This document shows positions 3,011 through 19,347 of a stretch of DNA of 64,000 bases, one piece after another. The stretch's first letter is position 1; each line of letters opens with the position of its first letter. Location of the stretch: positions 1-64,000 of the forward strand of contig WGLN01000017.1 of NCBI GenBank assembly GCA_016125555.1. The letters are read 5' to 3'. A model generated the notes under the pieces. The model was given only the letters and a program-made list of their open reading frames with translations, made no database searches and was not told the origin of the DNA. The DNA is from Porphyrobacter sp. (GTDB lineage Bacteria; Pseudomonadota; Alphaproteobacteria; Sphingomonadales; Sphingomonadaceae). The position numbers and the translations under genes were made by a program.

Positions 3011-3311
3011 GGGTATTGTCCTCCTGACTGGCGTGAGGCTGACGCACCCGCTCATGGCTGCGCCAGCGAGAGCCCGTCAGGGCCAGCTTGAGGCAGTCTC
3101 CGCACCCGACAGGGGAAACCCGCTTGGGCAGGCTGGCGCGGGCAGGCCAACGGCCCACAGGGCCGGGCCAACTCGGGCCTGCGCAAGCCGGGTTGCGGAT
3201 GACTGGCGGCTGGCCCAGGGCCTTTCTCGCATGGCTTCAGACCATGAGTGCATATGCAGGCTTCGTCAGTCAGGACAGGCACATCTGTACGCTCACGAGT
3301 GAGCGGCGCAT
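3011..3311. other. GC-rich intergenic leader region
   Basis: About 300 bp upstream of the DUF2493 gene. It is rich in GGCC/GGGCC inverted repeats (around 3150-3175) and would fold strongly as RNA. No open frame with a ribosome binding site was seen. It presumably holds the promoter and leader of the DUF2493 gene. Confidence 0.4.
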
Positions 3312-4687: not shown

Positions 4688-4775
4688 TTTGAATCTCCTG
4701 AAATGGCCTGACGACAGTTCCGTCGGTCAGTGCCGGAGATCCCGGAGCCCCCTCCGCTCTCATTCCATGAAGGAA

Positions 4776-4805
4776 GCGGCCCTCCGGCATGTACCGGAGG
4801 ACCGC
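4776..4805 (-). terminator. Strong hairpin after the ParB-like gene
   Basis: Inverted repeat GCGGCCCTCCGG / CCGGAGGACCGC around a 6-base loop, about 40 bp past the parB stop codon and 90 bp before ardC. The stem is nearly perfect (one wobble). The downstream tract on the minus strand is pyrimidine-rich but not a clean T-run, so it could be a weak terminator or a processing/stability structure in a shared transcript. Confidence 0.4.
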
Positions 4806-4842
4806 TTCACGGTGGCGAGCAGCCGTTCCTGTCAGGATGAGG

Positions 4843-6831: not shown

Positions 6832-6902
6832 GGGGCATACTCCTGATTGTGAACCCAGCATCGACCTTCGACGCTCATTCGGCTCAAACAGAAGCAAGCC
6901 CC

Positions 6903-6911
6903 CTTTCCTCT
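6903..6911 (-). promoter_or_regulatory. Shared leader element AGAGGAAAG (copy 2)
   Basis: AGAGGAAAG followed by GGGGCTTG on the minus strand, 72 bp upstream of the ParB-like start. The extended match to the helicase leader copy (33726-33734, followed by CGGGCTTG) is 16 of 17 bases. Confidence 0.3.
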
Positions 6912-6985
6912 CAATGACTGCCGGTGGGCCGATAGAAGACAGGCAGATTCTGGTTTCCGACAGGTATGAAGCGGACATTCGAACT

Positions 6986-7013
6986 GGTGTCACAACCGTT
7001 CGGTTGTGACACC
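6986..7013. repeat. 28-bp perfect palindrome related to IS1182-type ends
   Basis: Arms GGTGTCACAACCG and CGGTTGTGACACC around a central TT. The arm also forms the left boundary of both IS1182-type copies (around 8880 and 15320), and its core TCACAACCGTTCG occurs at the right end of the second copy. It lies between the isochorismatase-like gene and the ParB-like promoter region. It could be an unoccupied insertion target, a junction of two element tips, or an operator/centromere-like site. Confidence 0.6.
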
Positions 7014-7030
7014 TCGACCAACTTAAGAAT

Positions 7031-7603
7031 CTACGGAGACGGCTCAAGGAGTTGCTGCACTTTCGCTAAAATCTTGCCGTCAGTGGCACCGGCAAGATCA
7101 AGACCGCCGGTGGCGACAAGTGCGACGATGGAGGTGATGACTCCTCCCGCTTCCTCAATCTGACGAATCGCCGCCTCTTCGGTTCGCCGCGACAACCCGG
7201 CGCAAACATCGATGACCACGTGCACCGGCCAACCCCGTTCGCATGCGTCCAGCGCGGTCGCAAGAACGGCACCTTCAGTGACGATGCCCGCAATCAACAG
7301 CACGCCACTCGCGCACGACGCGGCCCACGTGGCCGTCTTCTCGTGATCCAGTGCGCTGAAGCTCCGCCGCGTGTGGATCGCATCCAAATTCATCAGGGTC
7401 GCTAACTCGGAAATGAGAGGAGGCCGGCTGGCAGGACCAGCCGGTATCGTCGAGGCCACGGATGGTAAATCAAGCGTTTGGGCGATCTCGAACAGCACGC
7501 CAGCGCTGCGCCGTAATTCCCATGGCGGCTGAGTACGTACGGTTTCGACAAGTCCCTCTTGAAGATCGACGAAAAGGATGTGAGCGCTGCGCAATAAGCT
7601 CAT
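7031..7603 (-). CDS. Isochorismatase-like hydrolase lacking the usual catalytic Cys
   Basis: A 190-residue protein with the cysteine-hydrolase fold: an N-terminal strand ending in the conserved Asp (HILFVDLQEGL, D13), the central TRRSFSAL segment, and LLIAGIVTEGAVLATALDACERGW. In canonical family members the last motif carries the nucleophilic Cys; here that position (residue 112) is Ala, and the usual catalytic Lys appears to be Arg. The protein may therefore be non-catalytic or use different chemistry (PhzD-type family members also lack the Cys). It overlaps the flavin reductase gene by 4 bp (ATGA), so the two are translationally coupled, probably under the adjacent PadR regulator. Confidence 0.8.
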   Translation of the reverse strand: MSLLRSAHILFVDLQEGLVETVRTQPPWELRRSAGVLFEIAQTLDLPSVASTIPAGPASRPPLISELATLMNLDAIHTRRSFSALDHEKTATWAASCASGVLLIAGIVTEGAVLATALDACERGWPVHVVIDVCAGLSRRTEEAAIRQIEEAGGVITSIVALVATGGLDLAGATDGKILAKVQQLLEPSP

Positions 7604-8244
7604 TGTTCCGATCTCCGCGCGCTGGGAAAATACCCTTCGTCCGCCAGATCAAGCCGATTTGTGATACGGGCGTAAGCAGTGCCAGCGAGGCGTCCGACTG
7701 CAGCCAGCTTGTCAAAATCGACGCGAGCATCCTTGTCGATAATGTCGTCCTCGACCGCGATATGGACTACCTGTCCGATAAACAGTCGCGATGAGCCGAC
7801 TTCAATCATTTGCAGCGTTCGACATTCGAAGGCGGCGGGCGCACCCGCGACCCGGGGGGGTGCTACTTGGCGCGACGCTGCCGGTGACATGCCGGTCAAT
7901 GTAAATTCGGAGGTGTCGGCGGCCACAGGTCGCGCACTCGCAGCCATCGCCGCAGCTTGCGTCTCGTTGACCACATTGACGACGAATTCGCCAGTCCCGC
8001 CTTGGTCTACCGGCATCAGATTGGCGCCGGTGTCTTTCCAACTCCCGTCCGGTTTGCGGCCTGTCACCGCGATCGAAATGGCTAAAGGATCGTGGCTGGC
8101 GATGCTGAAATAGGAAAACGGTGCAAGATTGGGTTCGTCTTTGGCCGACAGGCTTGACACCCAAGCGATCGGACGCGGGACGATAAGGCCGGTCATTAGC
8201 TTATACCGATGGCTGACCGGCAGATCATTAGGAGATACTTCCAT
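7600..8244 (-). CDS. Flavin reductase-like domain protein
   Basis: A 214-residue FMN-binding split-barrel protein (MTGLIVPRPIAWVSSLSAKDEPNLAPFSYFSIASHDP, then GEFVVNVVNE and SRLFIGQVVHI). Members reduce free FMN/FAD with NAD(P)H or act as flavoproteins on small molecules. It is the first gene of a two-gene operon with the isochorismatase-like protein and is divergent from a padR gene 54 bp away, a common arrangement for PadR-controlled detoxification genes. The substrate cannot be read from sequence. Confidence 0.85.
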   Translation of the reverse strand: MEVSPNDLPVSHRYKLMTGLIVPRPIAWVSSLSAKDEPNLAPFSYFSIASHDPLAISIAVTGRKPDGSWKDTGANLMPVDQGGTGEFVVNVVNETQAAAMAASARPVAADTSEFTLTGMSPAASRQVAPPRVAGAPAAFECRTLQMIEVGSSRLFIGQVVHIAVEDDIIDKDARVDFDKLAAVGRLAGTAYARITNRLDLADEGYFPSARRSEQ

Positions 8245-8274
8245 GGTTCAACCTGCTACGTTGCCAAAATTTCA

Positions 8275-8285
8275 ACTAGTCTAGT
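8275..8285. promoter_or_regulatory. Candidate PadR operator ACTAG-T-CTAGT
   Basis: An 11-bp inverted repeat in the 54-bp divergent region between padR and the flavin reductase gene, 13 bp before the padR start. Position and symmetry suit an autoregulatory site; there is no second copy to confirm it. Confidence 0.4.
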
Positions 8286-8298
8286 GTGGACCATCAGC

Positions 8299-8853
8299 AT
8301 GAGCAAGGGGCTACCCGACATATCTCCAGGCGGCGCTATCGTTCTAGGCCTCTTGCTGGACGGGCATGGAGCGCGCTCAGGCTATGATATTCAGAAACAA
8401 GCGGCCGCGAGCGTCGCGCATTTTTGGCCTGTGACGAAGGCTCACGTCTACGCCGAACTACCGAAACTTGAGGCCTCGGGCATGGTCACCAGTAAAGCTG
8501 TGACTCAGACAAAGTCACCAAACAAGAAGCTTTATGACGTCACGCATAACGGCAAAGCCGCCCTTCGCGAATGGCTTGCTAATGTCGATCTAGGCGAACC
8601 CAAGTTACGTCATCCACTCCTGCTTTGCATCTTTTTTGCGGCCGATATGGAACGCTCAGCGCTTATCAGTGCGATTGATACTCACCAAGCACGAACGGAA
8701 GCTACACTGGATCGATACAGACAATTGTATGGCAGGGAACCTGCTATGGATCAGGGGCAACAGCGTGGACGACGCCTCGTGTTGTTACACGGGGTGCGCC
8801 GCCTTGAGGCAGACTTGTCGTGGCTCGGCGATGTTCGAGCGGAAATGAGTTAG
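8299..8853 (+). CDS. PadR-family transcriptional regulator
   Basis: A 184-residue regulator. Residues about 10-85 form the PadR winged helix (GGAIVLGLLLDGHGARSGYDIQKQAA, HVYAELPKLEASGMVTSKAV, KKLYDVTHNGKAALREWL); the C-terminal half is the helical dimerisation domain of the longer, Vir-like PadR type (ATLDRYRQLYG, RRLVLLHGVRRLEADLSWL). It likely represses itself and the divergent flavin reductase/isochorismatase-like operon and is released by an aromatic or similar ligand. The start at 8299 (MSKGLPD) is where family similarity begins; the longer frame has no support. Confidence 0.85.
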   Translation: MSKGLPDISPGGAIVLGLLLDGHGARSGYDIQKQAAASVAHFWPVTKAHVYAELPKLEASGMVTSKAVTQTKSPNKKLYDVTHNGKAALREWLANVDLGEPKLRHPLLLCIFFAADMERSALISAIDTHQARTEATLDRYRQLYGREPAMDQGQQRGRRLVLLHGVRRLEADLSWLGDVRAEMS

Positions 8854-8881: not shown

Positions 8882-9847
8882 TCACAACCGGTCGTGGCTG
8901 TTGAAAAAGGCTGACGAGCGGCGGCTCGCTCGTTGAGTTCCCGGTGTAGGTGAATCGGGAGAACCGCAGTGATGGGCGAGCTGGGCGTTGTCGGCGGACA
9001 CGGCGCAAGGCGTGGCGTGTTGGACGCCACGTTGCCGCGCGACCACCTCTTGCGCAGGGTGGACCGGCTACTGGACATGGGCGAGCTTCGCGCCGCGCTC
9101 GCCCATCATTACAGCCCGCGCGGGCGGCCATCGATCGACCCGGAACTGTTGATCCGCATGACGTTGATCGGTCGCATTTACGCCATCCCGTCCGAGCCCC
9201 GACTGTGCGAGGAGGTTCGCTACAACCTCGCCTATCACTGGTTCTGTCGCCTGCCGCTCGGAGCGACCGTGCCGCACCATTCGACATTCAGCTAGAACCG
9301 GCATGGCCGTTTCCGCGATGCCGGCGTGTTCCGGCTGCTTTTCGAGAACACCGTCCGGCGCTGCGTCGCGGCTGGGCTGGTCGGGGCGAAGGACGCAGCT
9401 ATCGACGCGTCGTTCATCGCCGCGGATGCGAGTTGGCAGCGCAAGCTGCGCGATGGCGACCTCGACCAGGCCGGGACGTCTCGCCCGGTGCGGGAGTGGC
9501 TTGCCGATCAGGCGCTCAGCCCTGCGCCGGACAGCGGCCCGCGACGGGGCACGCCAGCCGAACTGTCGCGGACCGACCCGGCCGCGGCATGGTCAGCGCG
9601 CACCGCGCGCGGCCGCTTCGGCTATGCGTTCAACCTGCTGATGGACGCGCCTTCCGGAGCCGCGCTCGAGGTCGCGGCAACCCCCGCGCGCCATGCTTCG
9701 GAGGTCGACGCCGGCCGCGACATGCTGGCGCGTGCCGCTGAGCGGTTCGGCTATCGGCCAAAGCGGGTGACGGCCGATACTGCTTACGGCAGCGCCGCTT
9801 TCCTTGCCTTCATTCACGACCAAGGGGCGACGCCGCACATCCCCGTG
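8882..9847 (+). mobile_element. IS1182-type element, copy A: 5' fragment
   Basis: The left tip TCACAACCGGTCGTGGCTG followed by TTGAAAAAGG matches the left tip of copy B (15324). The transposase frame continues to about 9847, where an IS5-type element begins. Beyond that element the sequence is the 3' end of a LysR gene, not the rest of the transposase, so the 3' part of this copy has been lost. Because the IS5-type target repeat CTAG is intact on both sides, the deletion must have preceded that insertion. Confidence 0.8.
8972..9847 (+). pseudogene. IS1182-family transposase, truncated and with an amber codon
   Basis: Clear similarity along its length to the intact transposase at 15413 (LPRDHLLRRVDRLLD, GRPSIDPELLIRMTLIGRIYAI, YNLAYHWFCRLPLG, VPHHSTFS). 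The frame has an in-frame TAG at 9293-9295 where copy B has AAG (Lys, in STFSKNRHG), then continues in the same frame (NRHGRFRDAGVFRLLFE ... DTAYGSAAFLAFIHDQGATPHIPVL) until the truncation point. Both lesions make it non-functional. Confidence 0.85.
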
Positions 9848-9867
9848 CTAGGGTCAGGACTCGTTGA

Positions 9868-10257
9868 TCATAGCCAGAAGATGACGGTGGCAGCGAGAGC
9901 AACGGCAGAGAAGAATGCCGTGGGGCAGCGATCATAGCGGGTGGCAACACGCCTCCAGTCCTTGAGGCGGCCGAACATGATCTCGATGCGGCTGCGACGC
10001 CGGTAGCGACGCTTGTCATACCTGATGGGCTCGTTGCGTGATCGCCGGCCCGGAATGCAGGGCTGAATGCCCTTGGCCTGAAGAGCGTCGCGGAACCAGT
10101 CAGCGTCATAGCCGCGGTCGCCGAGCAGCCACTGCGCCTTTGGCAGGTCATCCAGCAGCGCTGCCGCGCCGGTGTAGTCGCTGACCTGGCCGGCGGTCAT
10201 GAAGAAGCTCAACGGGCGGCCGTTCGCGTCGGCAACGGCATGGAGCTTGGTGTTCAT
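9868..10257 (-). CDS. IS5-family transposase, frame B (DDE domain)
   Basis: The C-terminal part of a DDE transposase: MNTKLHAVADANGRPLSFFMTAGQ, then GDRGYDADWFRDALQAKGIQP and the final RSRIEIMFGRLKDWRRVATRYDR. It is not an independent gene: the preceding residues (KGDLGRLIGRTKGG) lie in the same frame upstream of 10257 and are reached by a -1 shift from frame A within the A-rich run near 10298. The fused product would be about 250 residues. Confidence 0.85.
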   Translation of the reverse strand: MNTKLHAVADANGRPLSFFMTAGQVSDYTGAAALLDDLPKAQWLLGDRGYDADWFRDALQAKGIQPCIPGRRSRNEPIRYDKRRYRRRSRIEIMFGRLKDWRRVATRYDRCPTAFFSAVALAATVIFWL

Positions 10258-10277
10258 GCCGCCTTTGGTCCGACCAA

Positions 10278-10625
10278 TCAGGCGGCCGAGATCCCCTTTT
10301 TAACCCGCAGGCTTGATGCCGTGCGGTGCGCCTTCAGGTAGGTCGCGTCGATCATCACGGTCTTGGGCTCCGCATCGGCCGCCGCCAGCCCCTCCATCAT
10401 GCGCGTAAATACGCCTCGCTCGCCCCAGCGCTTCCACCGGTTATACAGCGTCTTGTGAGGACCATACGCGCTTGGCGCGTCTCGCCAGCGCAGCCCGTTG
10501 CGGTTGACGAAGACGATGCCGCTCAGCACCCGCCGGTCATCGACACGCGGCTTGCCGTGGCTCTTCGGAAAGAACGGCCGCAGCCGCTCAATTTGTTCGT
10601 CCGTCAACCAAAACAGGTCGCGCAT
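10278..10625 (-). CDS. IS5-family transposase, frame A
   Basis: The N-terminal part of the transposase (MRDLFWLTDEQIERLRPFFPKS, DDRRVLSGIVFVNRNGLRWRDAP, YGPHKTLYNRWKRWGERGVF, then VMIDATYLKAHRTASS), including the first catalytic Asp in VMIDATYLK. It terminates just after a TTAAAAAGGGG run that is a plausible -1 ribosomal slippery site into frame B, the usual expression strategy of this IS group. Confidence 0.85.
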   Translation of the reverse strand: MRDLFWLTDEQIERLRPFFPKSHGKPRVDDRRVLSGIVFVNRNGLRWRDAPSAYGPHKTLYNRWKRWGERGVFTRMMEGLAAADAEPKTVMIDATYLKAHRTASSLRVKKGISAA

Positions 10626-10684
10626 CCCAGTCTCCTCACGGAGCCTGAAGCAGATGACGACGCTCACATCAATGGGTCCTGACC

Positions 10685-11587
10685 CTAGCTACATTTAGGC
10701 GGGTTTAACCGCCACTCAAGGCTCTTCAGACCCGCCGCAACCGCCTCGATCACAAGTCTGAGGCGCGAGACGTGGCGGGTGTCGCGGTGGACGCCCAGCC
10801 AGATGCCGCGCACTAGCCGATCACCCGCCACAGGAACCTCCAACAAACCCTGCGTGCCATGGCCGAGGTAGCACGGCAGAAACGCCAGTCCATAGCCCGC
10901 GACCGCAGCCTGAAACTGCGCGTCGCGGCTATTCGCCCGGAGCGCCACCCGCGCGCGGGGAGCGAGGTCGGCCAGTCGCTTCGCCTCGGGCAGGAGCGCG
11001 AGATCGTCTTGGAGTGCGACGATCGCATGCCCGGCCGCTCCCGCGCCGAAGTCGGGGGCTCCGTGGGCCTCCAGGTAGGCGGGCGCCGCGTAGAGCGCGA
11101 ATGCCATGTCGCCGACGCGGCGGACTACCGCCTCATGCTGCTCAAAAGCAGCGAGCCTGAGAGCGATGTCCGCCTCCCGCCGCGAAAGCGAAAGAGCGCG
11201 CGTATCCGTAATCAGCTCGATCGACAGCTCGGGTTGGCGATCGAGCAGCGGCTTCAGCAGCGGCACGAGCACGCGGGCGCCGAAGGTCTCGACGGTGGTG
11301 ATTCGCACCTCGCCCGAGATTCTGGTGTCCTCACCGGTAATGGCCCGCTCGACCGACAGCGCCTCGGCCTCCATTCGCTCGACGTTGGCCATCACCCGCT
11401 CGCCCGCGGGGGTCAGAACGAAACCGGTGGGCGTCTTCTGGAGAAGCCGCGCTCCCGCACGAGCGTGGAGCACCTCCAAGCGCCGGCCCATGGTGGTCTG
11501 CGTGACCTTCAGCGCGCGGGCGGCGGCGGACAGGTTTCCGTGCCGCGCAATCGCGAGGAAGCTGCGAAGATCGTCCCAGTCCAGCAT
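10685..11587 (-). CDS. LysR-family regulator of the adjacent quinone-type operon
   Basis: A 300-residue LysR protein. The N-terminal helix-turn-helix (MLDWDDLRSFLAIARHGNLSAAARALKVTQTTMGRRLEVLHARAGARLLQKT) is followed by the two-lobed ligand domain (ISGEVRITTVETFGARVLVPLL, ADIALRLAAFEQHEAVVRRVGDMAFALYAAPAYL, DAQFQAAVAGYGLAFLPCYLG). It is divergent from a SnoaL-like gene. A 17-bp motif in its promoter is repeated before the DoxX gene, so it probably controls both units. Its stop TAG lies within the CTAG target repeat of the IS5-type element, so insertion left the protein unchanged, although the last few residues may derive from an older deletion junction. Confidence 0.9.
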   Translation of the reverse strand: MLDWDDLRSFLAIARHGNLSAAARALKVTQTTMGRRLEVLHARAGARLLQKTPTGFVLTPAGERVMANVERMEAEALSVERAITGEDTRISGEVRITTVETFGARVLVPLLKPLLDRQPELSIELITDTRALSLSRREADIALRLAAFEQHEAVVRRVGDMAFALYAAPAYLEAHGAPDFGAGAAGHAIVALQDDLALLPEAKRLADLAPRARVALRANSRDAQFQAAVAGYGLAFLPCYLGHGTQGLLEVPVAGDRLVRGIWLGVHRDTRHVSRLRLVIEAVAAGLKSLEWRLNPPKCS

Positions 11588-11612
11588 GGCACCTCCTGCG
11601 CCTCGTCCTATG

Positions 11613-11629
11613 CGTTTTCGCATAACCGG
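11613..11629 (+). promoter_or_regulatory. Candidate LysR box CGTTTTCGCATAACCGG (copy 1)
   Basis: It lies in the divergent lysR / SnoaL-like promoter region and contains the inverted repeat TATGCG-TTTT-CGCATA (11610-11625), fitting a LysR T-N11-A type site. A 15-of-17 match lies upstream of the DoxX operon at 12346-12362 in the same orientation. Confidence 0.55.
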
Positions 11630-11718
11630 TCGACGCCTTTCTCCGATCCCAGAGTGATCGCAAGCGCCCTAACTCCCGATTGACGCCCGCCTGGGCGCCG
11701 AAACAGAGGAGAACTGTG

Positions 11719-12258
11719 ATGAAAACCTTGTTCGCCGCCTTCGCTGCAGTCGCACTGCTGACCGGCGCTGCGGTCGCCCAAACAACCGACCAGCGAACGC
11801 TCGAAAACTATCGCACCGCCGAGCGAATCGCCAACCAGCACCTGAAGACCTTCGATACGCTCGACTTCGACGTCTTCTCGAACCAGGACTGGGGACGGCT
11901 GAAGGAGAGCCATGCACAGAACGTCACCGTCCACTGGCCGGACGGCCACGCCACCCATGGCATCGACAAGCATATCGACGACCTCAAGTATATGTTCACC
12001 TACGCGCCTGACACGCGGATCAAGGTCCATCCGGTCAAGGTCGCTCAGGGCGACTGGACAGCGGTCGTCGGCGTCATGGAGGGCACCTTCACCCGGCCGA
12101 TGACCATGCCGGACGGCAAGGTGATCCAGCCGAACGGTAAGGCGTTCAAGATCCCAATGGCGACCGTGAGTCATTGGAACAAGGAAGGCACCATGTCGGA
12201 GGAGTATCTCTTCTGGGACAACCAGACCTACATGGCCCAGCTCGGCATCGCCGGCTGA
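11719..12258 (+). CDS. Exported SnoaL-like (NTF2-fold) protein
   Basis: A 179-residue protein with a Sec signal peptide (MKTLFAAFAAVALLTGAAVAQ, cleavage after AVA or AQ) and a mature SnoaL/ester-cyclase-like cone fold: RTAERIANQHLKTFDTLDFD, then WGRLKESHAQNVTVHWPDGHATHGIDKHIDDLKYMF and AVVGVMEGTFTRPM. NTF2-fold proteins of this type bind or isomerise small hydrophobic molecules; here the site would be periplasmic. A GAGGAG ribosome binding site precedes it. It is the first gene divergent from lysR and ends before a strong terminator, so it forms its own transcript next to the DoxX operon. Confidence 0.8.
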   Translation: MKTLFAAFAAVALLTGAAVAQTTDQRTLENYRTAERIANQHLKTFDTLDFDVFSNQDWGRLKESHAQNVTVHWPDGHATHGIDKHIDDLKYMFTYAPDTRIKVHPVKVAQGDWTAVVGVMEGTFTRPMTMPDGKVIQPNGKAFKIPMATVSHWNKEGTMSEEYLFWDNQTYMAQLGIAG

Positions 12259-12284
12259 TCTGCCCTCCCAGCAGCGCCTCCGCA

Positions 12285-12311
12285 GCCCCGCCGGCGAGGA
12301 GCCGGCGGGGC
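12285..12311 (+). terminator. Intrinsic-type terminator after the SnoaL-like gene
   Basis: A perfect 11-bp stem GCCCCGCCGGC / GCCGGCGGGGC with a 5-base loop, 26 bp past the stop codon. The following tract (TTCGTGCATTT) is only moderately T-rich. It separates the SnoaL-like gene from the second copy of the LysR-type motif and the DoxX operon. Confidence 0.65.
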
Positions 12312-12345
12312 TTCGTGCATTTCGGCATCTGCACGCCTGCCCCCA

Positions 12346-12362
12346 CGTTTTTGCATAGCCGG
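12346..12362 (+). promoter_or_regulatory. Candidate LysR box CGTTTTTGCATAGCCGG (copy 2)
   Basis: It matches copy 1 (11613-11629) at 15 of 17 positions and lies about 100 bp upstream of the DoxX gene, just after a terminator. This suggests that the same LysR protein activates the five-gene DoxX operon. Confidence 0.55.
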
Positions 12363-12460
12363 AACGCGCAACCTTAGAATGGTGAACGAGGGATCAAGGG
12401 GCCATCTCGGCGTCGCGGCTCCGCAAGAGCCGCCCCAAAGCGAGAGAAAGGAGCTTCACC

Positions 12461-12892
12461 ATGATCGACAATCGTCTCGCGCCCTACGGCGCCTTCGCAC
12501 TCCGCGCCGCTTCCGGGGCGCTGTTCCTCGCCCATGCAGGGCTCAAGCTGTTCGTGTTCACGCCGGCCGGCACAGCTCAGTTCTTCGAGAGCGTCGGCGT
12601 CCCCGGCCCAGTCGCCTATCTCACCATTCTCGCCGAGGTGATCGGGGGCACAGCCCTTCTGCTCGGCGTCTACACCCGGCAGGCGGCCGCCGTGCTCATC
12701 GCCGTGCTTCTAGGCGCGATCTTCAGCGTCCACCTCGGCAACGGCTTCTTCTTCAACGCGTCGAACGGCGGGTGGGAGTATCCGGCGTTCTGGATCGTGG
12801 CGCTCGCCGCACAGATGCTGATCGGCGAAGGCGCGTTCGCGCTGAAGCCCACCGCGGCATTGGACACCCGCACCGCCGCGGTGGCGGTCTAA
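12461..12892 (+). CDS. DoxX-family membrane protein
   Basis: A 143-residue integral membrane protein with four hydrophobic segments (about residues 8-30, 48-66, 72-92, 105-125). It shows DoxX features: LFLAHAGLKLFVFTPAGTAQFFESVGVPGPVAYLTILAEVIGGTALLLG. DoxX proteins are small quinone-linked or redox-linked membrane proteins; CatD and MhqP in Bacillus are family members induced by catechols and quinones. A GGAG site precedes it. It leads an operon with FMN reductase, dioxygenase, esterase and a small membrane protein. Confidence 0.85.
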   Translation: MIDNRLAPYGAFALRAASGALFLAHAGLKLFVFTPAGTAQFFESVGVPGPVAYLTILAEVIGGTALLLGVYTRQAAAVLIAVLLGAIFSVHLGNGFFFNASNGGWEYPAFWIVALAAQMLIGEGAFALKPTAALDTRTAAVAV

Positions 12893-12916
12893 CTGGAACG
12901 GGAAAGGAGAACCGCC

Positions 12917-13504
12917 ATGGCTCAGCCCTTCGACATCGCCGTGATCCTGGGTAGCCTGCGTGCCGAGGGCTTGAGCCGCCGCACGGCCCAGGCTCTGGCC
13001 CGGGCCGCTCCGGCCTCGCTCACGCTCCACCCGCTCGCGATTGGCGACCTGCCGCTTTACAATCCAGACTTCGAGGAAGCGGGGCGCTCGGTCCCCGCCT
13101 GGGAGGCGTTCCGCGCGGGGCTTCGCGCCGCCGATGGCGTGCTGTTCGTGACACCCGAGTACAACCGCTCGGTTCCGGCCGCGCTCAAGAACGCGATCGA
13201 CGTGGGATCGCGGCCCTACGGACGGAGCGCTTGGGCCGGCAAGCCGTCCGGCATCGTCTCGATGTCGCCGGGCGCGATGGGTGGGTTCGGGGCCAACCAC
13301 CATCTTCGCCAAAGCCTCGTGTTCCTCGACATGCCCGTCCTGCAGCAGCCAGAAGCCTATATTGGCGGTGCAGGCGAGTTGTTCGGGCCTCGAGGCGAAG
13401 TCCACGACGAAGCGATTGCAGCCTTGCTGTCCGGTTTTATGGAAGCGTTCGCGCGCTGGGTCGGGCTGCATGTCGACGGCTCCGCCGACGCCAAGGCCGC
13501 TTGA
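12917..13504 (+). CDS. NAD(P)H-dependent FMN reductase, ChrR/YieF type
   Basis: A 195-residue flavodoxin-fold protein. The FMN phosphate loop is ILGSLRAEGLSRRTAQAL, and the family signature TPEYNRSVPAALKNAIDVGSRP lies near residue 80. Enzymes of this group reduce quinones, chromate or azo compounds by two-electron transfer, limiting semiquinone formation. It starts 24 bp after the DoxX gene with an AAGGAG site and is followed 11 bp later by a dioxygenase, which points to reduction of a quinone to a hydroquinone before ring cleavage. Confidence 0.85.
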   Translation: MAQPFDIAVILGSLRAEGLSRRTAQALARAAPASLTLHPLAIGDLPLYNPDFEEAGRSVPAWEAFRAGLRAADGVLFVTPEYNRSVPAALKNAIDVGSRPYGRSAWAGKPSGIVSMSPGAMGGFGANHHLRQSLVFLDMPVLQQPEAYIGGAGELFGPRGEVHDEAIAALLSGFMEAFARWVGLHVDGSADAKAA

Positions 13505-13515
13505 GGAGGATGACC

Positions 13516-14310
13516 ATGCTTCCCACCCTGTTCGTGAGCCACGGCGCGCCGACATTGCCGCTGACCGACGCGCCCGCCAAGCGTTTCCTTCAGGAGCTGC
13601 CCTCGCTGCTCCCGGAAAAGCCCCGGGCCGTGCTGATGATCTCGGCGCATTGGGAAACCGCGGAGCCGGCGGTCAACATCGTCGCGGTCAATGATACGAT
13701 CCACGACTTCGGCGGCTTCGCCCGCGAGCTATTCGAGATCCGCTACCCGGCTCCCGGCTCCGCCGCGCTGGCTGAGCGGGTGAGCGACCTCCTCGCGGCC
13801 ACGGGTATGCCGTGCGGCGTCGACCGGCGCCGCGGGCTGGATCACGGCGCCTGGATCCCGCTCATGCTCATGTACCCGGACGCTGAAGCCCCCGTCGTCC
13901 AGCTATCCGTGCAGAGCAGACTCGGCCCGGCCCATCATTTGGCGCTCGGCCGCGCGCTCGAGGCGCTCCGCGCCGAGGGCGTGCTCGTGGTCGGCTCGGG
14001 CTCGTTCACGCACGACCTGTCGGAGTTCCGGCGCTACCGCGAGGTGATCGGCGAGCCGGAGCCCGCATGGGTCGCCGACTTCGCCACATGGTTCGACGCT
14101 GCCCTTGCCGAAGGGCGGACGGCGGACCTCCTCGCCTATCGCCGCCTTGCGCCCCATGCCGCGAAGAACCACCCGACCGAGGAGCACCTGCTGCCCCTTT
14201 ATGTCGCGCTCGGCGCCGCTGGCGCGGGCGCTTCCGTCGAGCGGCTGCACGCGAGCACCACGCACGGCGTGCTGCGAATGGACGTCTACGCGTTTGGAGG
14301 CTGGTCGTGA
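13516..14310 (+). CDS. LigB/DODA-type extradiol ring-opening dioxygenase
   Basis: A 264-residue cytosolic enzyme of the class III extradiol (LigB) superfamily, closest in look to 4,5-DOPA dioxygenase (YgiD). Likely metal and active-site histidines are in FVSHGAPTL (H9), MISAHWET, GLDHGAWIPLML and GSFTHDL; the C-terminal STTHGVLRMDVYAF is also typical. It would cleave a catechol or hydroquinone-type ring. Start at 13516 is preferred over an ATG 6 bp earlier because the GAGGAGG site ends at 13509. The next gene overlaps its stop codon. Confidence 0.85.
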   Translation: MLPTLFVSHGAPTLPLTDAPAKRFLQELPSLLPEKPRAVLMISAHWETAEPAVNIVAVNDTIHDFGGFARELFEIRYPAPGSAALAERVSDLLAATGMPCGVDRRRGLDHGAWIPLMLMYPDAEAPVVQLSVQSRLGPAHHLALGRALEALRAEGVLVVGSGSFTHDLSEFRRYREVIGEPEPAWVADFATWFDAALAEGRTADLLAYRRLAPHAAKNHPTEEHLLPLYVALGAAGAGASVERLHASTTHGVLRMDVYAFGGWS

Positions 14311-14975
14311 CCGCCACGCTAGAGCTAGACCATAACATCCGAATTGCCCCCAACGGCGGTCGCTCACAAGGGCTAGCTGTCCTGCTTCATGGGGTCGGAT
14401 CATCGGCCATGGCTATGGTGTCGCTCGGCCGCGCGATTACTGACAAAGTGCCTGGCATTGCGGTAGTGGCGCTTGACGGTCCCGACCCGTTTGATCTCGG
14501 GCCGCAAGGACGCCAGTGGTTCAGCGTCGCGGGCGTGACGGAGGCGAACAGGCCTGCACGGGTGGCGTCCGCGCTGCCCGGTTTGCGGGCGATGATCGCG
14601 CGAGAGCAGGAGCGGGTCGGTTTGCCTGCCGAGCGCACCGCCCTTATCGGCTTTAGCCAGGGAGCGATCATGGCGCTGCACCTTGCGGGCGAGACGCGTC
14701 CACCAGCGGTGATCGTCAGCCTCGCGGGTCGGCTCGCGGCACCGTTGCCACTACGCAATGGACCGAAGCCGGCCATTTTACTCAGCCACGGCTCGGCAGA
14801 CGCCGTGATCGCTCCGGAGGAGCTTGAATGCGCGGCGGTTGAACTGCAAAGAATCGGCTGCGTCGTCGAGACACGGATCGTGCCTGGTCACGGGCACGCG
14901 GTCCACGCTGCGCAGATACGGGCCGCCGTCGACAAGGTGTCTGGCATCCTGCAAGCTAGAAAGCGGGCGGCATGA
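14307..14975 (+). CDS. Alpha/beta hydrolase, carboxylesterase/phospholipase type
   Basis: A 222-residue hydrolase starting at GTG 14307, overlapping the dioxygenase stop by 4 bp. The fold markers are VLLHGVGSS (oxyanion region), the nucleophile elbow IGFSQGAIMALHL, SHGSADAVI with the acid, and GHGHAVHA with the catalytic His. It resembles the carboxylesterase 2 / YpfH / MhqD family. In Bacillus the MhqD esterase is co-regulated with ring-cleaving dioxygenases in quinone detoxification, and the placement here suggests a parallel role. Substrate unknown. Confidence 0.85.
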   Translation: MTATLELDHNIRIAPNGGRSQGLAVLLHGVGSSAMAMVSLGRAITDKVPGIAVVALDGPDPFDLGPQGRQWFSVAGVTEANRPARVASALPGLRAMIAREQERVGLPAERTALIGFSQGAIMALHLAGETRPPAVIVSLAGRLAAPLPLRNGPKPAILLSHGSADAVIAPEELECAAVELQRIGCVVETRIVPGHGHAVHAAQIRAAVDKVSGILQARKRAA

Positions 14976-15346
14976 GTCCCGTGTCACCCTTCCTGGCGCA
15001 CCCTAAGGTGCGCCAGATCCTGCTCGCCTGGATCGCGGCATGGCCGACCCTCACGCTGATCCTGTTCGTACTCCGTCCCGTTACCGAAGGCTGGTCGTTA
15101 CCATTGCGAGCACTGGCCAGTTCCACCGGCATGGTGCTGACAATGAATCTCGTCAGCCTTCCCCTCGTACGGCTACTCATCAGACGCTGGCGCGAATTTG
15201 TTCAGTCGCCGCACACCGGTCGTGCCGCCTGTAACCTACTCCGATTATCAGCGCCCGCTAGCTGCCAGCAGCCCCTTGTTGCGCGTTCAGCTGTTCATCA
15301 TTGCAAGCCGCTACATGAAGGTGTCACAACCGAACGAGACTGTTGA
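14972..15346 (+). CDS. Small membrane protein (DUF2798-like), 3' end altered by IS insertion
   Basis: It starts at an ATGA overlap with the esterase gene. The first 75 residues hold two membrane segments (ILLAWIAAWPTLTLILFVL and GMVLTMNLVSLPLVRLLI) and resemble DUF2798 proteins, which are normally about 75-80 residues. The remaining 50 residues are low-complexity, and the last eight are read from the left tip of the IS1182-type element, so the C-terminus is probably not original. No function is known beyond a link to this operon. Confidence 0.55.
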   Translation: MSPVSPFLAHPKVRQILLAWIAAWPTLTLILFVLRPVTEGWSLPLRALASSTGMVLTMNLVSLPLVRLLIRRWREFVQSPHTGRAACNLLRLSAPASCQQPLVARSAVHHCKPLHEGVTTERDC

Positions 15347-16837
15347 AAAACTAGCGCTTGCGGCGGTTGGGGCCGGGTAATTCACTCGGTCGAGGCGTCG
15401 GGGGTGCGGAGCATGATGGGTCGGCAGGTGGCACAAGTGTCGCTGTTTTACGGTTTTCGGCTCGACGATCATGTGCCCGACGACCACCTTTTGCGTCGGA
15501 TCGACGGACTGCTCGACTTTGGCTTCGTGCGCGAAGCGTTGGCCGATAGTTATAGCGCCGCCGGGCGGCCGTCGATCGACCCCGAGCTGATGCTGCGGAT
15601 GCTTCTGATCGGTTATCTGTTCGGCATCCGGTCCGAGCGTCGGCTGTGCCAGGAAGTGCATCTCAACCTTGCGTATCGCTGGTTCTGTCGCCTCGATCTC
15701 GGCGACGCGGTTCCCGACCACTCGACCTTTTCCAAGAACCGCCATGGCCGCTTCCGCGCGTGCGATCTGTATCGCCTGCTGTTCGAGCAGGTGGTCGCCC
15801 GATGCGCCGCGGTCGGATTGGTGACGGGCCGCGAGCTTGCCGTGGATGGCAGCACGATCATGGCGGACGCGAGTTGGGAGAAGAAGCTGCCCGGGGCGAC
15901 CGCCGCCGATGAGCTACGCGCGCGCGACGTGGTGTCGCGCCCGGTGGCTGAGTATCTGGCTGCGCTCGATGCGGCGCTGCCGCCCGAGCGGGACGAGCAC
16001 GCGACTGTCGAGCCGACCCAGGTCTCGCCGACCGACCCGCAGGCGGCTTTGACGCGCAAACACGGTCCGGCGCGCTATGCCTATGCGATCAACCCGCTGC
16101 TCGATCTCGATACCGACTGCATTCTCGACATCGAAGCCACGCCCGCGCGCTTCTCAGCAGAGGTCGCGGCAGCCCGAACCCTCATCACCCGAGCCAAGGC
16201 GACGCTCGGCATCGCACCCGTCCAGCTTGCGGCCGACAAAGCCTATGGCAACGGTCCGTTGCTCGGGTGGCTGATCAACGAGGGCATCACGCCGCATGTG
16301 CCAGTGATCGACCGAACACGACAGCGCAACGACTTCTTCACCCGCGACGCCTTCCGGTACGATCGCGACGCCAACGTCTATCACTGCCCGAACGACAAGC
16401 GCCTGACGTACCGGGGCACCGCGCAGGCAAGCCAGGTCCGCGCTTATCGCAGCCGTCCCGCCGACTGCGCCGCGTGCGCGCTCAAGCCGCAGTGCACCAC
16501 CGCCAGGCAGCGCGCCGTTACGCGCCTCGTCACCGAAGATGCACGCGATCAGGTCCGCGCCCTCAGCGGCACCGAAGCCTCGACCCGCGCGCGACAGCGA
16601 CGAAAGCGGATCGAGCGCGTGTTCGGGCACCTCAAACGCAACCTCAACCTCAGATCATTAAAGCTGAGAGGCCTGAACGGAGCCGCCGAAGAGTTCACGA
16701 TGGCAGCCGCGGCCTACAACCTCCAGCTGCTCGCCAGGCGGGCAGCGCCAGTGTGATCGCTACCGCCGCGCCGTCATCGCCTCGACGACCACGCCGATCT
16801 CGCAACCGACTTCTTCAACAGCCTCGAACGGTTGTGA
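15324..16837 (+). mobile_element. IS1182-type element, copy B (intact, about 1.5 kb)
   Basis: The left tip TCACAACCGAACGAGACTG followed by TTGAA and the right tip (reverse complement TCACAACCGTTCGAGGCTG, then TTGAA) form an imperfect inverted repeat of about 29 bp around one complete transposase gene. The outer flanks are also inverted: CATGAAG at 15314-15320 and CTTCATG at 16840-16846. No clear direct target repeat is visible. This pattern suggests insertion into a palindrome. Confidence 0.85.
15413..16756 (+). CDS. IS1182-family transposase
   Basis: A 447-residue DDE transposase with the N-terminal DUF772-type domain (DDHLLRRIDGLLDFGFVREAL, GRPSIDPELMLRMLLIGYLFGI, FCRLDLGDAVPDHSTFSKNRHG), catalytic Asp region (GRELAVDGSTIMADAS), second Asp (LAADKAYGNGPLLGWL), a Cys cluster (CAACALKPQC) and the C-terminal Glu region (RKRIERVFGHLKRNLNLRSLKLRGL). 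The frame is intact, in contrast to copy A at 8972. Two adjacent ATG codons (15413, 15416) are possible starts. Confidence 0.9.
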   Translation: MMGRQVAQVSLFYGFRLDDHVPDDHLLRRIDGLLDFGFVREALADSYSAAGRPSIDPELMLRMLLIGYLFGIRSERRLCQEVHLNLAYRWFCRLDLGDAVPDHSTFSKNRHGRFRACDLYRLLFEQVVARCAAVGLVTGRELAVDGSTIMADASWEKKLPGATAADELRARDVVSRPVAEYLAALDAALPPERDEHATVEPTQVSPTDPQAALTRKHGPARYAYAINPLLDLDTDCILDIEATPARFSAEVAAARTLITRAKATLGIAPVQLAADKAYGNGPLLGWLINEGITPHVPVIDRTRQRNDFFTRDAFRYDRDANVYHCPNDKRLTYRGTAQASQVRAYRSRPADCAACALKPQCTTARQRAVTRLVTEDARDQVRALSGTEASTRARQRRKRIERVFGHLKRNLNLRSLKLRGLNGAAEEFTMAAAAYNLQLLARRAAPV

Positions 16838-17184
16838 TACTTCATGAAACGGCGGCTTACGACGTATACACACCCGAAGGTGCACCGACAGCTGACCACC
16901 TTAGTTACCGCCTTTCGCCGTACGATTGGCGGTGCTGGAAACCGGACGCTGCCGGGCGAGCAGACTAACGCCACGAATAGGGCCGCTTACCGACAGTCTG
17001 CTTTTGGACCCGGGAACGCGCGTAACGGCCATTCCTATTCCGCAAGAGCAAATCGCTCTGAGCGTATGAATGCGCGTCACGGGCTCTTTTCAACCCGGCT
17101 GAGCAGCCGACCGCTTCTCCCTCGCTCGCTATTGCTAATCAATCGCATTAAACCTACAGCCTCTCCCGATCCACGGGAGGAACT
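16838..17184. other. Intergenic region upstream of the TonB-dependent receptor
   Basis: About 350 bp from the IS right end to the receptor gene. Open frames here run into the receptor gene in a wrong frame and look spurious. The last 60 bp hold a near-palindromic Fur-box-like site (17130-17150) and a GGGAGG ribosome binding site. Confidence 0.5.
17130..17150. promoter_or_regulatory. Candidate Fur-type box
   Basis: The core TGCTAATCAATCGCA (17133-17147) has 7-1-7 symmetry, and the 21-bp span matches its own reverse complement at 14 positions. It lies 35-55 bp before a TonB-dependent receptor start, as expected for an iron-responsive site. Confidence 0.4.
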
Positions 17185-19347
17185 ATGTTCGAGCTACTGC
17201 CAAATCTCCGTCTCACCGCCTCGATCGCCGCTCTCACGATTGCTGCCGCCGCCGGTCCCGTCCTGGCTCAGGACGACGGCTCCACGAGAGGAGTTGTCGA
17301 AGGGCCGGCGCCCGATGCGGGTATCGTGGTTACCGCCGCGCGCACCGAGCTTCCACCGAGTGCCCTGCCGCTGACGATTGATGTGCTCGGCGGCGAGGCG
17401 TTCGAGGATCAGGTGCTTGTCTCGGGGTCGGTCGTTGATGCGGTGTCGGCGCGCTTCCCCGCGTTCTCGCCGACGCGTGAGAAGCTCTCGGGCGCGGGCG
17501 AAAGCCTGCGCGGGCGCTCGGTGCTGTTCGCGATCAACTCGGTGCCGCAGTCGACCCCGATCCGCGACGGTTCACGCGACGGTTACACGATCGACCCGTT
17601 CTTCATCGACCGGGTCGAGGTGATCTATGGATCGAATGCACTGCAGGGCATAGGCGCGACCGGGGGCGTGGTGAACCAGGTGACCATCGGCGCGCCGGCG
17701 GAGGATGGTGTTTCTGGCCGTGCGCTGCTTATGGGCACGGCGCAGGACGGGTTCGACGGAGAGGCGCTTGGAGGCAAGATCGCCAGCTATGTCGGTTACC
17801 GCGCGGGCGACTTCGACGCCACGTTTGGCGCTGCGTTTGAGCGTCGCGGCGCATTCCTGGATGGCGACGGCAACCGGATCGGCGTCGATGGAACGCAAGG
17901 CGAGATCCAGGACAGCGATAGCTGGTCCGTGTTCGGTCGACTTGGCTACCAGCTTTCCGACACCGCGCGGGTGGAGCTGGTCGCAAACCGCTTCGAGCTT
18001 GAAGGCAACAACAATTACGTGCTGGTAAACGGCAATCGTGCGCTCGGCCTTCCGGCGACCAGCGTCCGCGGGACTACACCAGGGGATCCGCCGACTAACC
18101 GGGCAGAGCTGTTCTCACTTTCCTTCAGCGAGGGCGACCTCGCCGGCGGCGTGCTCAATCTGCAGGCGTTCTACAGCAAAACACTCGACGTGTTCGGCGG
18201 CGGCAGGTTCGCCACATTCCAGGACCTGTCGATCGATCCCACCGGAAAGCTGTTCGACCAGTCGGCGAACCGCAGCCGTAAGATCGGTGGCAAGGCGAGC
18301 TACGAGCGTGCGCTCCCCGGACTTGAAGACCTGGTGTTGACGGTCGGCGTCGACGCGCTGTTCGACCGCACCGCGCAGAGCCTGACCCAAACGGGGCGCG
18401 ACTGGGTGCCGCAGAGCGACTTTCGCAGCCTCGCCCCCTTCGCGCAGGGCAACCTGGCGCTGTTCGACGGGCTGCTGCGACTCGCCGGCGGTGCCCGCTT
18501 CGAGAACGTGCAGCTCAAGGTGCCCGACTTCACCACGCTCGCCTCCTATGGCGCGCAGCAAGTGTCCGGCGGCACCCCGAGCTTCGATCGAGTACTGTGG
18601 AACGGCGGCGTCATCGTCGAGCCGCTGACGGGCGTTCGTGCCTACGGCAGCTACGCGGAAGGTTACACGATTGCCGACGTGGGTCGCATACTTCGCGCCG
18701 TCGACAAGCCAGGAGTCGATGTCGACAACTTCCTCGCGCTCGAGCCGGTGATCTCCAACAACCGCGAAGCGGGGATCGAGGTAAAACAAGGCCCGCTTGA
18801 AGCGAGCGCGAGCTACTACTGGTCGAAGAGCGACCTGGGCTCTTTGCTGGTCGAGAACGCCGACGGCATTTTCGACGTCGCACGCCAGCCGATAGCGATC
18901 GAGGGGCTCGAACTGAGCCTCGCGACACAAACGCCAGTTCCGGGCCTGGTTCTGTCGACCGCCTACAGCCACATCGTCGGCCGAACCGACGAGGATGCCG
19001 ACGGGCTGGTGGACGAGGACCTGGACGGCGCGAACATCTCGCCCGACCGGGTGAACGTGGCGGCGGACTATCGTCGCGGACCGCTCTCGGCGCGGGTCGC
19101 GGGCCGGTTCTACCTCTCGCGCACGTTCAACAATCAACCGGCGCGCGACGACTTCAGCGGCTACGCGCTGATCGATGCGCTCGTCGGTTACGAGACTTCG
19201 ATCGGCGAGCTCTCGCTGGCAGTCAACAACCTGCTCGACGAGCAATACATTACCTACAACTCCGACACTGTGCGAACGACCGACAACGCGCGCTTCTTCG
19301 CCGGGCGTGGGCGGACGTTCGTCCTCGCCTGGCAGAAGGAGTTCTGA
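17185..19347 (+). CDS. TonB-dependent outer-membrane receptor
   Basis: A 720-residue receptor with a signal peptide (SIAALTIAAAAGPVLAQ), a plug domain (EGPAPDAGIVVTAARTELPPSALPLTIDVLGGEAFE, later IDPFFIDRVEVIYGSNALQGIGATGGVVN) and a 22-strand-type barrel ending in the aromatic C-terminus FVLAWQKEF. Such receptors import ferric siderophores, haem or other chelates with TonB energy. The following gene (1-bp overlap) is a PepSY membrane protein, a family often paired with siderophore receptors as a periplasmic or inner-membrane reductase. Together with the Fur-like box this suggests iron-chelate uptake, but the substrate is unknown. Confidence 0.9.
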   Translation: MFELLPNLRLTASIAALTIAAAAGPVLAQDDGSTRGVVEGPAPDAGIVVTAARTELPPSALPLTIDVLGGEAFEDQVLVSGSVVDAVSARFPAFSPTREKLSGAGESLRGRSVLFAINSVPQSTPIRDGSRDGYTIDPFFIDRVEVIYGSNALQGIGATGGVVNQVTIGAPAEDGVSGRALLMGTAQDGFDGEALGGKIASYVGYRAGDFDATFGAAFERRGAFLDGDGNRIGVDGTQGEIQDSDSWSVFGRLGYQLSDTARVELVANRFELEGNNNYVLVNGNRALGLPATSVRGTTPGDPPTNRAELFSLSFSEGDLAGGVLNLQAFYSKTLDVFGGGRFATFQDLSIDPTGKLFDQSANRSRKIGGKASYERALPGLEDLVLTVGVDALFDRTAQSLTQTGRDWVPQSDFRSLAPFAQGNLALFDGLLRLAGGARFENVQLKVPDFTTLASYGAQQVSGGTPSFDRVLWNGGVIVEPLTGVRAYGSYAEGYTIADVGRILRAVDKPGVDVDNFLALEPVISNNREAGIEVKQGPLEASASYYWSKSDLGSLLVENADGIFDVARQPIAIEGLELSLATQTPVPGLVLSTAYSHIVGRTDEDADGLVDEDLDGANISPDRVNVAADYRRGPLSARVAGRFYLSRTFNNQPARDDFSGYALIDALVGYETSIGELSLAVNNLLDEQYITYNSDTVRTTDNARFFAGRGRTFVLAWQKEF

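What the first reader, a model, noticed from the sequence alone, without database searches (positions are those of the whole stretch)
10685..15346. A LysR-controlled operon that gathers the parts of the Firmicute quinone-detoxification regulons
The set DoxX, ChrR-like FMN reductase, LigB-type dioxygenase and MhqD-like esterase occurs in one tight transcript (24-bp and 11-bp gaps, then two overlaps). In Bacillus the MhqR and CatR regulons (mhqNOP, mhqED, azoR2, catDE) use the same functional set of DoxX, flavin reductase, ring-cleaving dioxygenase and esterase, but with VOC-type dioxygenases and a MarR-family sensor. Here a LysR sensor, a LigB-fold dioxygenase and an exported SnoaL-like protein replace or extend it. 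I infer a convergent quinone/catechol electrophile defence on a mobile element.
Basis: partly seen in the sequence, partly recalled or inferred. Interest (0 to 1): 0.7.

Follow-up and report, generated by a model that had tools for sequence, protein, structure and literature searches.

The report
Likely quinone-detoxification gene cluster under LysR
A small bacterial gene cluster between mobile elements carries a sensor, a membrane protein and three enzymes that together probably disarm toxic quinone or catechol compounds, and a likely control site of its sensor can be recognised in related clusters elsewhere.

Summary
The observation mostly holds. A divergent LysR gene faces an exported-looking SnoaL gene; after a strong hairpin comes a tight run: DoxX, ChrR/YieF-type FMN reductase, LigB/DODA-type dioxygenase, carboxylesterase and a doubtful small ORF ending inside an IS1182 element. 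That makes at least two units, not one operon.

It is more than chance. Within 1.5 kb of 116 related dioxygenase genes, DoxX occurs in 37 and LysR in 36; at 2.7-4.5 kb, in 0 and 3. Reductase and esterase are rare additions (0 and 1 of 116). A Blastomonas plasmid holds the same five families in another order, its reductase broken. A perfect dyad, TATGCGTTTTCGCATA, lies between lysR and snoaL; matches of 12/16 or more sit in 8 of 8 gaps of loci in the window's LysR clade, and in 0 of 26 other gaps.

The quinone/catechol reading is supported by partner genes and by E. coli YhaJ, a LysR regulator that mediates hydroquinone induction of DoxX (yqjF) and LigB (ygiD) promoters (PMC5031710). That regulon is the closest parallel; the window LysR is not YhaJ. 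New variant of a known kind; ligand and activity untested.

The parts
10685..11587 (-). LysR-type regulator (ORF open to 11623; likely start 11587)
   Evidence: PF00126 and PF03466 above cut-off; in a 9-row LysR clade with 100/100 support
11609..11624 (.). Candidate operator site 1, perfect dyad TATGCG-TTTT-CGCATA in the lysR/snoaL gap
   Evidence: only match at 2 or fewer mismatches in the 3.07-Mb genome; matches of 12/16 or more in 8 of 8 gaps of clade members and 0 of 26 other gaps
11719..12258 (+). SnoaL-like protein with an N-terminal signal-like stretch (signal seen by eye)
   Evidence: PF07366 54.3 bits; a 52% relative lies in the LigB cluster of L036
12284..12312 (+). 12-pair GC-rich hairpin between snoaL and doxX (possible terminator, no T run)
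   Evidence: not listed by the terminator scan
12342..12362 (.). Candidate operator site 2, weaker (11 of 16), about 100 bp before doxX
   Evidence: similar stretch CACATTTTTGCATAGCCGG in the LysR-DoxX gap of L016
12461..12892 (+). DoxX-family membrane protein
   Evidence: PF07681 65.8 bits
12917..13504 (+). NAD(P)H-dependent FMN reductase family protein of ChrR/YieF type
   Evidence: PF03358 133 bits; nearest solved chains 3u7r, chromate reductases, YieF
13516..14310 (+). LigB-type extradiol dioxygenase of the DOPA-dioxygenase (DODA/YgiD) group
   Evidence: PF02900 126 bits; NF007914 180 bits, under its cut-off 233; nearest solved chains 8in2, 29ky, 9j2l, 2pw6
14307..14975 (+). Alpha/beta-hydrolase esterase of the phospholipase/carboxylesterase family (GTG start)
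   Evidence: PF02230 87.9 bits; GFSQG, HGxAD and GH segments align with 4fhz
14972..15346 (+). Small membrane-like ORF whose 3' end lies in the IS1182 terminal repeat; doubtful member
   Evidence: DUF2798 at E 0.21 only; no match in 95 other genomes; no tblastn hit in 118 loci
9852..10684 (-). IS5-like element (named by eye, transposase not scanned) with CTAG on both sides, abutting the lysR stop codon
   Evidence: inverted repeat 9847-9868/10668-10689; CTAG read by eye
15321..16840 (+). IS1182-family element, transposase 15404-16756
   Evidence: NF033551 401 bits, cut-off 270; terminal inverted repeats 83% complementary

Best explanation
A LysR-controlled quinone/quinol (hydroquinone, catechol) detoxification cluster. 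Inferred mechanism: a quinone, quinol or derivative binds the LysR regulator, which sits at the dyad between lysR and snoaL and at a weaker site before doxX, and turns on both units. The FMN reductase reduces quinones by two electrons to quinols; the DODA-type dioxygenase opens the quinol or catechol ring; the esterase hydrolyses a lactone or ester form of the product; DoxX works at the membrane with this redox chemistry; the SnoaL protein handles a related compound outside the cytoplasm. Shown here: gene families, order, recurrence of the LysR-DoxX-LigB core, and a dyad that goes with one LysR clade. Inferred: the ligand, binding, the transcripts, every reaction and any protective effect.
For: Families and order. 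Recurrence: DoxX in 37 and LysR in 36 of 116 dioxygenase loci within 1.5 kb, against 0 and 3 at 2.7-4.5 kb. Quinone-linked partners: a protein 53-67% like a glutathionyl-hydroquinone reductase in 4 of 118 loci, next to LigB in 2 of them; FMN_red directly upstream in 3 of 105, GST in 2; Flavodoxin_2 directly downstream in 1 of 37, an AzoR-like protein in L036 (by eye); a pirin in L017. Blastomonas pBSY18_2: LigB, esterase, DoxX, LysR and an FMN_red fragment in a row, with the identical 16-mer before LigB. Operator test 8 of 8 against 0 of 26. E. coli YhaJ is needed for hydroquinone induction of yqjF (DoxX) and ygiD (LigB) (PMC5031710). P. fluorescens In5 co-induces an alpha/beta hydrolase, azoreductases, pirins, LigB, YqjG and DoxX against Rhizoctonia (PMC5557065 passages).
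Against: No expression or activity data exist for this cluster. The window LysR is 25% identical to YhaJ and the dyad is not the YhaJ box. Most of the 118 loci lack DoxX and LysR near LigB. The FMN reductase probe found nothing within 1.5 kb in 116 loci, esterase and SnoaL one each; the five families together were seen only in the window and, with a broken reductase, in one plasmid. Upstream neighbours also include unrelated families, such as DAHP synthase in 4 and O-methyltransferase in 3 of 105. The nearest locus, L016 (76%), has no reductase, esterase or SnoaL hit in its 12.8 kb. Loci were chosen by similarity to the window enzyme and are not independent.
Confidence: 0.68

Rival explanations
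1. A catabolic or biotransformation cluster for one specific phenolic (DOPA, a flavonoid, a lignin or nitroaromatic product) rather than a general stress defence.
For: YgiD cleaves L-DOPA in vitro (stated in PMC5031710); LysR regulators commonly govern aromatic degradation (same paper).
Against: None of the cluster's seven genes is a semialdehyde dehydrogenase, hydratase, aldolase or importer; the rest of the window was not searched for them. Partners elsewhere include several redox enzymes.
Confidence: 0.18
2. Catecholate handling for iron: opening or recycling catechol siderophores, with the FMN reductase as ferric reductase, the esterase cutting a siderophore backbone and the nearby TonB receptor importing it.
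For: A TonB receptor related to siderophore receptors lies at 17185-19347; B. subtilis CatE acts in bacillibactin recycling (PMC6798810 passage).
Against: The receptor is separated from the cluster by an IS1182 element; the esterase is of the PF02230 family. TonB receptors near the relatives were not tallied.
Confidence: 0.07
3. Chance assembly of unrelated genes by insertion sequences.
For: IS elements on both sides; reductase, esterase and SnoaL rarely accompany the core elsewhere.
Against: Overlapping genes, recurring LysR and DoxX, five families together on a second replicon, a clade-specific dyad at matching places.
Confidence: 0.04

Closest known systems
E. coli YhaJ regulon (yqjF, yhaK, yhhW, ygiD, ybiJ, yceP), with yqjG beside yqjF
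   Same: LysR regulator; DoxX (YqjF) and LigB/DODA (YgiD) targets; hydroquinone as inducer, catechol for yqjF (PMC5031710); glutathionyl-hydroquinone reductase gene next to the DoxX gene
   Different: Targets scattered on the chromosome; YhaJ 25% identical to the window LysR; a different box (T-N11-A, TCA-N7-TGA); pirins rather than FMN reductase and esterase among its targets
Firmicute MhqR / YodB-CatR / QsrR quinone regulons
   Same: Ring-cleaving dioxygenase beside a phospholipase/carboxylesterase (mhqED), and quinone reductases (PMC6798810 passages); DoxX members are recalled, that paper's text has no 'DoxX'
   Different: MarR-family sensors; MhqE described as LinE-like, not LigB
Rhizobiaceae plasmid clusters LysR, DoxX, VOC protein, glutathione transferase, esterase (L083, L084, L089)
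   Same: LysR, DoxX, a possible ring-cleavage enzyme, a quinone-linked reductase and an esterase in one run (families tested on L083 only)
   Different: VOC fold in place of LigB, glutathionyl-hydroquinone-reductase-like protein in place of FMN reductase; lysR codirectional
Blastomonas sp. RAC04 plasmid pBSY18_2 cluster (L082)
   Same: LigB, esterase, DoxX, a LysR of the window's clade, a broken FMN_red fragment and the identical 16-mer
   Different: Gene order; lysR codirectional at the end of the run; a FUSC-family gene upstream; no SnoaL match within 4.2 kb

Membership tests
E. coli YhaJ regulon | Regulator is YhaJ or an ortholog | tested here: not met
   25% identity over 250 columns, E 0.001; not placed in the window's LysR clade, though YhaJ's long branch makes its place unsure
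E. coli YhaJ regulon | Genes controlled include DoxX and LigB/DODA proteins | tested here: met
   Both families present next to the regulator: PF07681, PF02900; DoxX 51% identical to YqjF over 41 aa. Control itself not tested
E. coli YhaJ regulon | YhaJ box T-N11-A with TCA-N7-TGA | tested here: not met
   The window dyad is TATGCG-N4-CGCATA, with no T-N11-A in it (by eye; box as described)
E. coli YhaJ regulon | Induction by hydroquinone | not testable with these tools
   needs expression data
Firmicute MhqR/CatR-type quinone regulons | MarR-family sensor | tested here: not met
   LysR family
Firmicute MhqR/CatR-type quinone regulons | LinE-like or catechol-type dioxygenase (VOC fold, recalled) | tested here: not met
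   LigB, PF02900; no VOC/glyoxalase hit
Firmicute MhqR/CatR-type quinone regulons | Phospholipase/carboxylesterase beside the dioxygenase | tested here: met
   PF02230, 4-bp overlap; not compared with MhqD itself
DODA/YgiD extradiol dioxygenase | LigB domain and DODA-like sequence | tested here: met
   PF02900; the four solved matches are three named 4,5-DOPA dioxygenase extradiol and YgiD; SHG, SAHWET, LDHGAW and TH segments align with 8in2
DODA/YgiD extradiol dioxygenase | NCBI equivalog cut-off for 4,5-DOPA-extradiol-dioxygenase (NF007914) | tested here: not met
   180.3 bits against 233
ChrR/YieF-type FMN reductase | FMN_red fold with ChrR/YieF among the nearest solved relatives | tested here: met
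ChrR/YieF-type FMN reductase | NAD(P)H:quinone or chromate reductase activity | not testable with these tools
   needs an enzyme assay

The most novel reading that the evidence does not exclude
DoxX plus a DODA-type dioxygenase is a portable quinol-detoxification core that has been put under unrelated LysR lineages (the window clade and a Rhizobiales clade share one dioxygenase clade but not one LysR clade), and in some lineages has gained an esterase that completes a two-step ring opening and lactone/ester hydrolysis, reached separately in the window group, in a Pseudomonas plasmid and, with another dioxygenase fold, in Rhizobiaceae and Firmicutes.
Probability: 0.3. Interest if true: 0.6.

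Novelty: new variant of a known kind. Interest (0 to 1): 0.45.

Why it matters
To my knowledge (recalled) DoxX proteins and bacterial DODA enzymes have no settled role. A cluster that puts both with a likely quinone reductase and an esterase beside one regulator, with a candidate operator that can be recognised across genomes, gives a direct way to test whether their common job is to disarm quinones and catechols. If true, it would also show that Proteobacteria and Firmicutes reached a similar enzyme set with different sensors and different dioxygenase folds.

Tried and rejected
Rejected: one operon including SnoaL (202-bp gap and hairpin). Rejected: YhaJ orthology. Rejected: chance IS assembly. 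Rejected: the LysR T-N11-A rule as support for the dyad (it does not fit). Small last ORF as a DUF2798 protein: E 0.21 only. The consensus CGTTTTYGCATARCCGG, built from both window sites, is no independent evidence: 11 of 100 shuffles had at least 2 matches at up to 3 mismatches.

Limits of the operator test. The 16-mer was taken from the window and the eight clade loci come from the LysR tree; six of their gaps had been read by eye before. The L082 gap (FUSC to LigB) was set by hand after one search had shown its site. Six loci with gaps over 900 bp were dropped (L196, L043, L156, L218, L221, L046), and other loci with LysR on the dioxygenase's strand were not scored. Of the 26 other gaps 25 have their LysR in the tree; L024's was too short. 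Two others reached 11 of 16 (L023, empirical p 0.009; L208, 0.12); among clade loci L033 had p 0.029. In 122 loci (1.17 Mb, window not included) the dyad core had 5 matches at 1 or fewer mismatches against 1.8 in base shuffles, and 29 at 2 mismatches against 31.2: there is no excess at 2 mismatches, so position carries the evidence. Of the 5, 3 lie in clade gaps and 2, both in L019, do not.

Other weak points. In the LigB tree the nine window-clade loci are not one clade; holding them together was not rejected (p-AU 0.34, quick tree). Crude gene calling was unreliable and was replaced by tblastn placement. The neighbour tally covers 105 upstream and 37 downstream ORFs of 118 loci because the rest had none that passed the rule. 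The Blastomonas locus was picked when other searches had already shown DoxX, LysR and esterase there; the Rhizobiaceae regions were picked for their esterase match. Not run: structure prediction, fold searches.

Literature searches: in their listings I recognised no description of a LysR-DoxX-LigB-esterase cluster. Papers: PMC5031710 parts 1-4 of 5; PMC5557065, PMC6798810 and PMC8719888 passages only; all others listings only.

Full report
What is there. The window holds a LysR regulator on the minus strand (10685-11587; the ORF is open to 11623). Facing it on the plus strand are SnoaL (11719-12258), DoxX (12461-12892), an FMN reductase (12917-13504), a LigB dioxygenase (13516-14310), an esterase (14307-14975) and a small membrane-like ORF (14972-15346). 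Pfam assigns the first six above their cut-offs. SnoaL is set apart from doxX by 202 bp and a 12-pair hairpin, so there are probably at least two transcription units besides lysR. The last ORF ends inside the IS1182 terminal repeat and has no known family.

Nearest characterised proteins. The reductase is closest to chain 3u7r, then the chromate reductases and YieF. The dioxygenase matches four solved sequences, three named 4,5-DOPA dioxygenase extradiol and E. coli YgiD; it scores 180 bits on the NCBI DOPA-dioxygenase model, whose cut-off is 233. The esterase is of the phospholipase/carboxylesterase family, nearest 4fhz, with the GFSQG, HGxAD and GH segments aligned. SnoaL has one weak solved relative, IdmH, E 0.0026.

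Surroundings. An IS5-like element (named by eye) abuts the lysR stop codon, and an IS1182 element follows the cluster. Upstream lie ArdC-like and ParB-like genes, an isochorismatase, a flavin reductase and a PadR regulator. The contig is 158,745 bp and the window also has a tRNA-Met gene, so whether the replicon is plasmid or chromosome is open. Of 60 same-genus genomes 3 have any match to the dioxygenase, at 44% identity or less. This fits acquisition rather than descent within the genus.

Recurrence. A scan of genome contigs with the dioxygenase gave 36 loci, and 80 stretches were taken from whole genomes around the best matches of two searches. With two plasmid loci this makes 118. Within 2.5 kb, centre to centre, LysR is found in 39, DoxX in 38, a glutathionyl-hydroquinone-reductase-like protein in 4, esterase in 3, and SnoaL and FMN reductase in 1 each. 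In the 116 non-plasmid loci, within 1.5 kb of the gene, DoxX is in 37, LysR in 36, the hydroquinone-reductase-like protein in 4, esterase in 1, SnoaL in 1 and FMN reductase in 0; at 2.7-4.5 kb, DoxX is in 0, LysR in 3 and FMN reductase in 1. Of 29 esterase-anchored loci, one (G134) has LigB and LysR nearby and none has DoxX. So LysR-DoxX-LigB is a recurring core present in about a third of these loci, while reductase and esterase are rare additions.

Immediate neighbours by Pfam. Upstream of LigB: DoxX in 34 of 105, FMN_red in 3, GST in 2, Flavin_Reduct in 2, but also DAHP synthase in 4, O-methyltransferase in 3 and DUF2336 in 3. Downstream: Abhydrolase_2 in 3 of 37, pseudouridine synthase in 2, Flavodoxin_2 in 1. 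L017 has a pirin in the slot and Sphingopyxis L043 an FMN_red. L036 has LysR, LigB, an AzoR-like, a YceI-like and a SnoaL protein in a row; the AzoR and YceI names are by eye. The closest locus, Sphingomonas sp. YR710 (L016), has LysR 76%, DoxX 73% and LigB 76%, with 61 bp between DoxX and LigB.

Plasmid parallels. Blastomonas sp. RAC04 pBSY18_2 has LigB, esterase, DoxX and LysR in a row, then a broken FMN-reductase fragment, with a FUSC-family gene upstream. Rhizobium sp. SL42 and two Agrobacterium plasmids are annotated with LysR, DoxX, a VOC protein, a glutathione transferase and a hydrolase in the same order. On SL42 I tested these: the transferase matches YqjG and glutathionyl-hydroquinone reductase structures, the hydrolase is PF02230, and the VOC protein is a glyoxalase-fold match. 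A P. kurunegalensis plasmid has LysR, an F420-type oxidoreductase, LigB and a PF02230 esterase.

Operator. The lysR-snoaL gap holds a perfect dyad, TATGCG-TTTT-CGCATA (11609-11624), the only match at 2 or fewer mismatches in the 3.07-Mb genome. The dyad core is exact in 2 of 226 loci: the window's own copy and the Blastomonas plasmid, where it lies between FUSC and LigB with the same 16 letters on the other strand. The tree of 48 LysR proteins puts the window in a clade of nine with 100/100 support: with it L016, L186, L082, L031, L033, L036, L146 and L147. In these eight the best gap match to the 16-mer is 12 to 16 of 16 (mean 13.25); for seven, 0 of 1000 random stretches of their own locus were as good, for L033 the share was 0.029. 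In 26 gaps of other loci the best is 7 to 11 (mean 9.27). A weaker site precedes doxX and has a close counterpart in L016. The limits of this test are told in Tried and rejected.

Regulator exchange. In the dioxygenase tree (115 rows) the window clade's nine loci and the nine loci kept from the Rhizobiales-type LysR clade (twelve in the LysR tree) fall in one supported set of 32 (SH-aLRT 96), yet their LysR clades are separated, the window clade by a stem of 2.62 changes per column. The same module seems to stand under different LysR lineages. The P. kurunegalensis dioxygenase lies outside that set, so its pairing with an esterase looks separate.

Known parallels. In E. coli K-12, YhaJ, a LysR regulator, is needed for induction of yqjF (DoxX) by DNT, hydroquinone, catechol and others, and for hydroquinone induction of ygiD (LigB), yhaK, yhhW and ybiJ; it binds these promoters, and the authors propose quinol degradation as its role (PMC5031710). 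yqjG, glutathionyl-hydroquinone reductase, is next to yqjF, and yhaJ and yhaK lie close by. The window LysR is 25% identical to YhaJ and its dyad differs, so it may work like that regulon but is not shown to be a member. In P. fluorescens In5, confrontation with Rhizoctonia raised an alpha/beta hydrolase (239.5-fold), azoreductases (142- and 10.1-fold), a pirin (43.4), LigB (39.4), YqjG (23.5) and DoxX (5.9) (PMC5557065 passages). In S. aureus, mhqRED pairs a MarR repressor with a dioxygenase and a phospholipase/carboxylesterase (PMC6798810 passages); that DoxX proteins belong to the Bacillus regulons is recalled.

Verdict. The quinone/catechol reading is the best supported (0.68), but the closest functional parallel is the proteobacterial YhaJ regulon. 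The cluster is a new variant of a known kind with a testable operator. No reaction, ligand or protective effect has been shown.

Noticed in passing
window 7031-8853: Divergent PadR regulator beside a flavin-reductase-like and an isochorismatase-like protein: a second small redox/detoxification-looking unit next to the cluster.
   Followed up: no
window 3746-7047: ArdC-like antirestriction protein and a large ParB-like protein, often found on mobile elements (recalled), while the same window carries a tRNA-Met at 37097-37173.
   Followed up: no
window 17185-19347: TonB-dependent receptor related to siderophore receptors just beyond the IS1182 element.
   Followed up: partly
window 8969-9847: Remnant of a second IS1182-like transposase, cut by the IS5-like element (by eye).
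   Followed up: no
L087 (Azospirillum pAB510b) and L088 (Rhizobium CB3060 plasmid): YceI-family proteins are annotated next to a glutathione transferase and an alpha/beta hydrolase in L087, and within 3 kb of a SnoaL relative with an NADH:flavin oxidoreductase nearby in L088.
   Followed up: partly
window 2057-3055: YspA/SLOG-family protein (PF10686) upstream of the ArdC-like gene.
   Followed up: no
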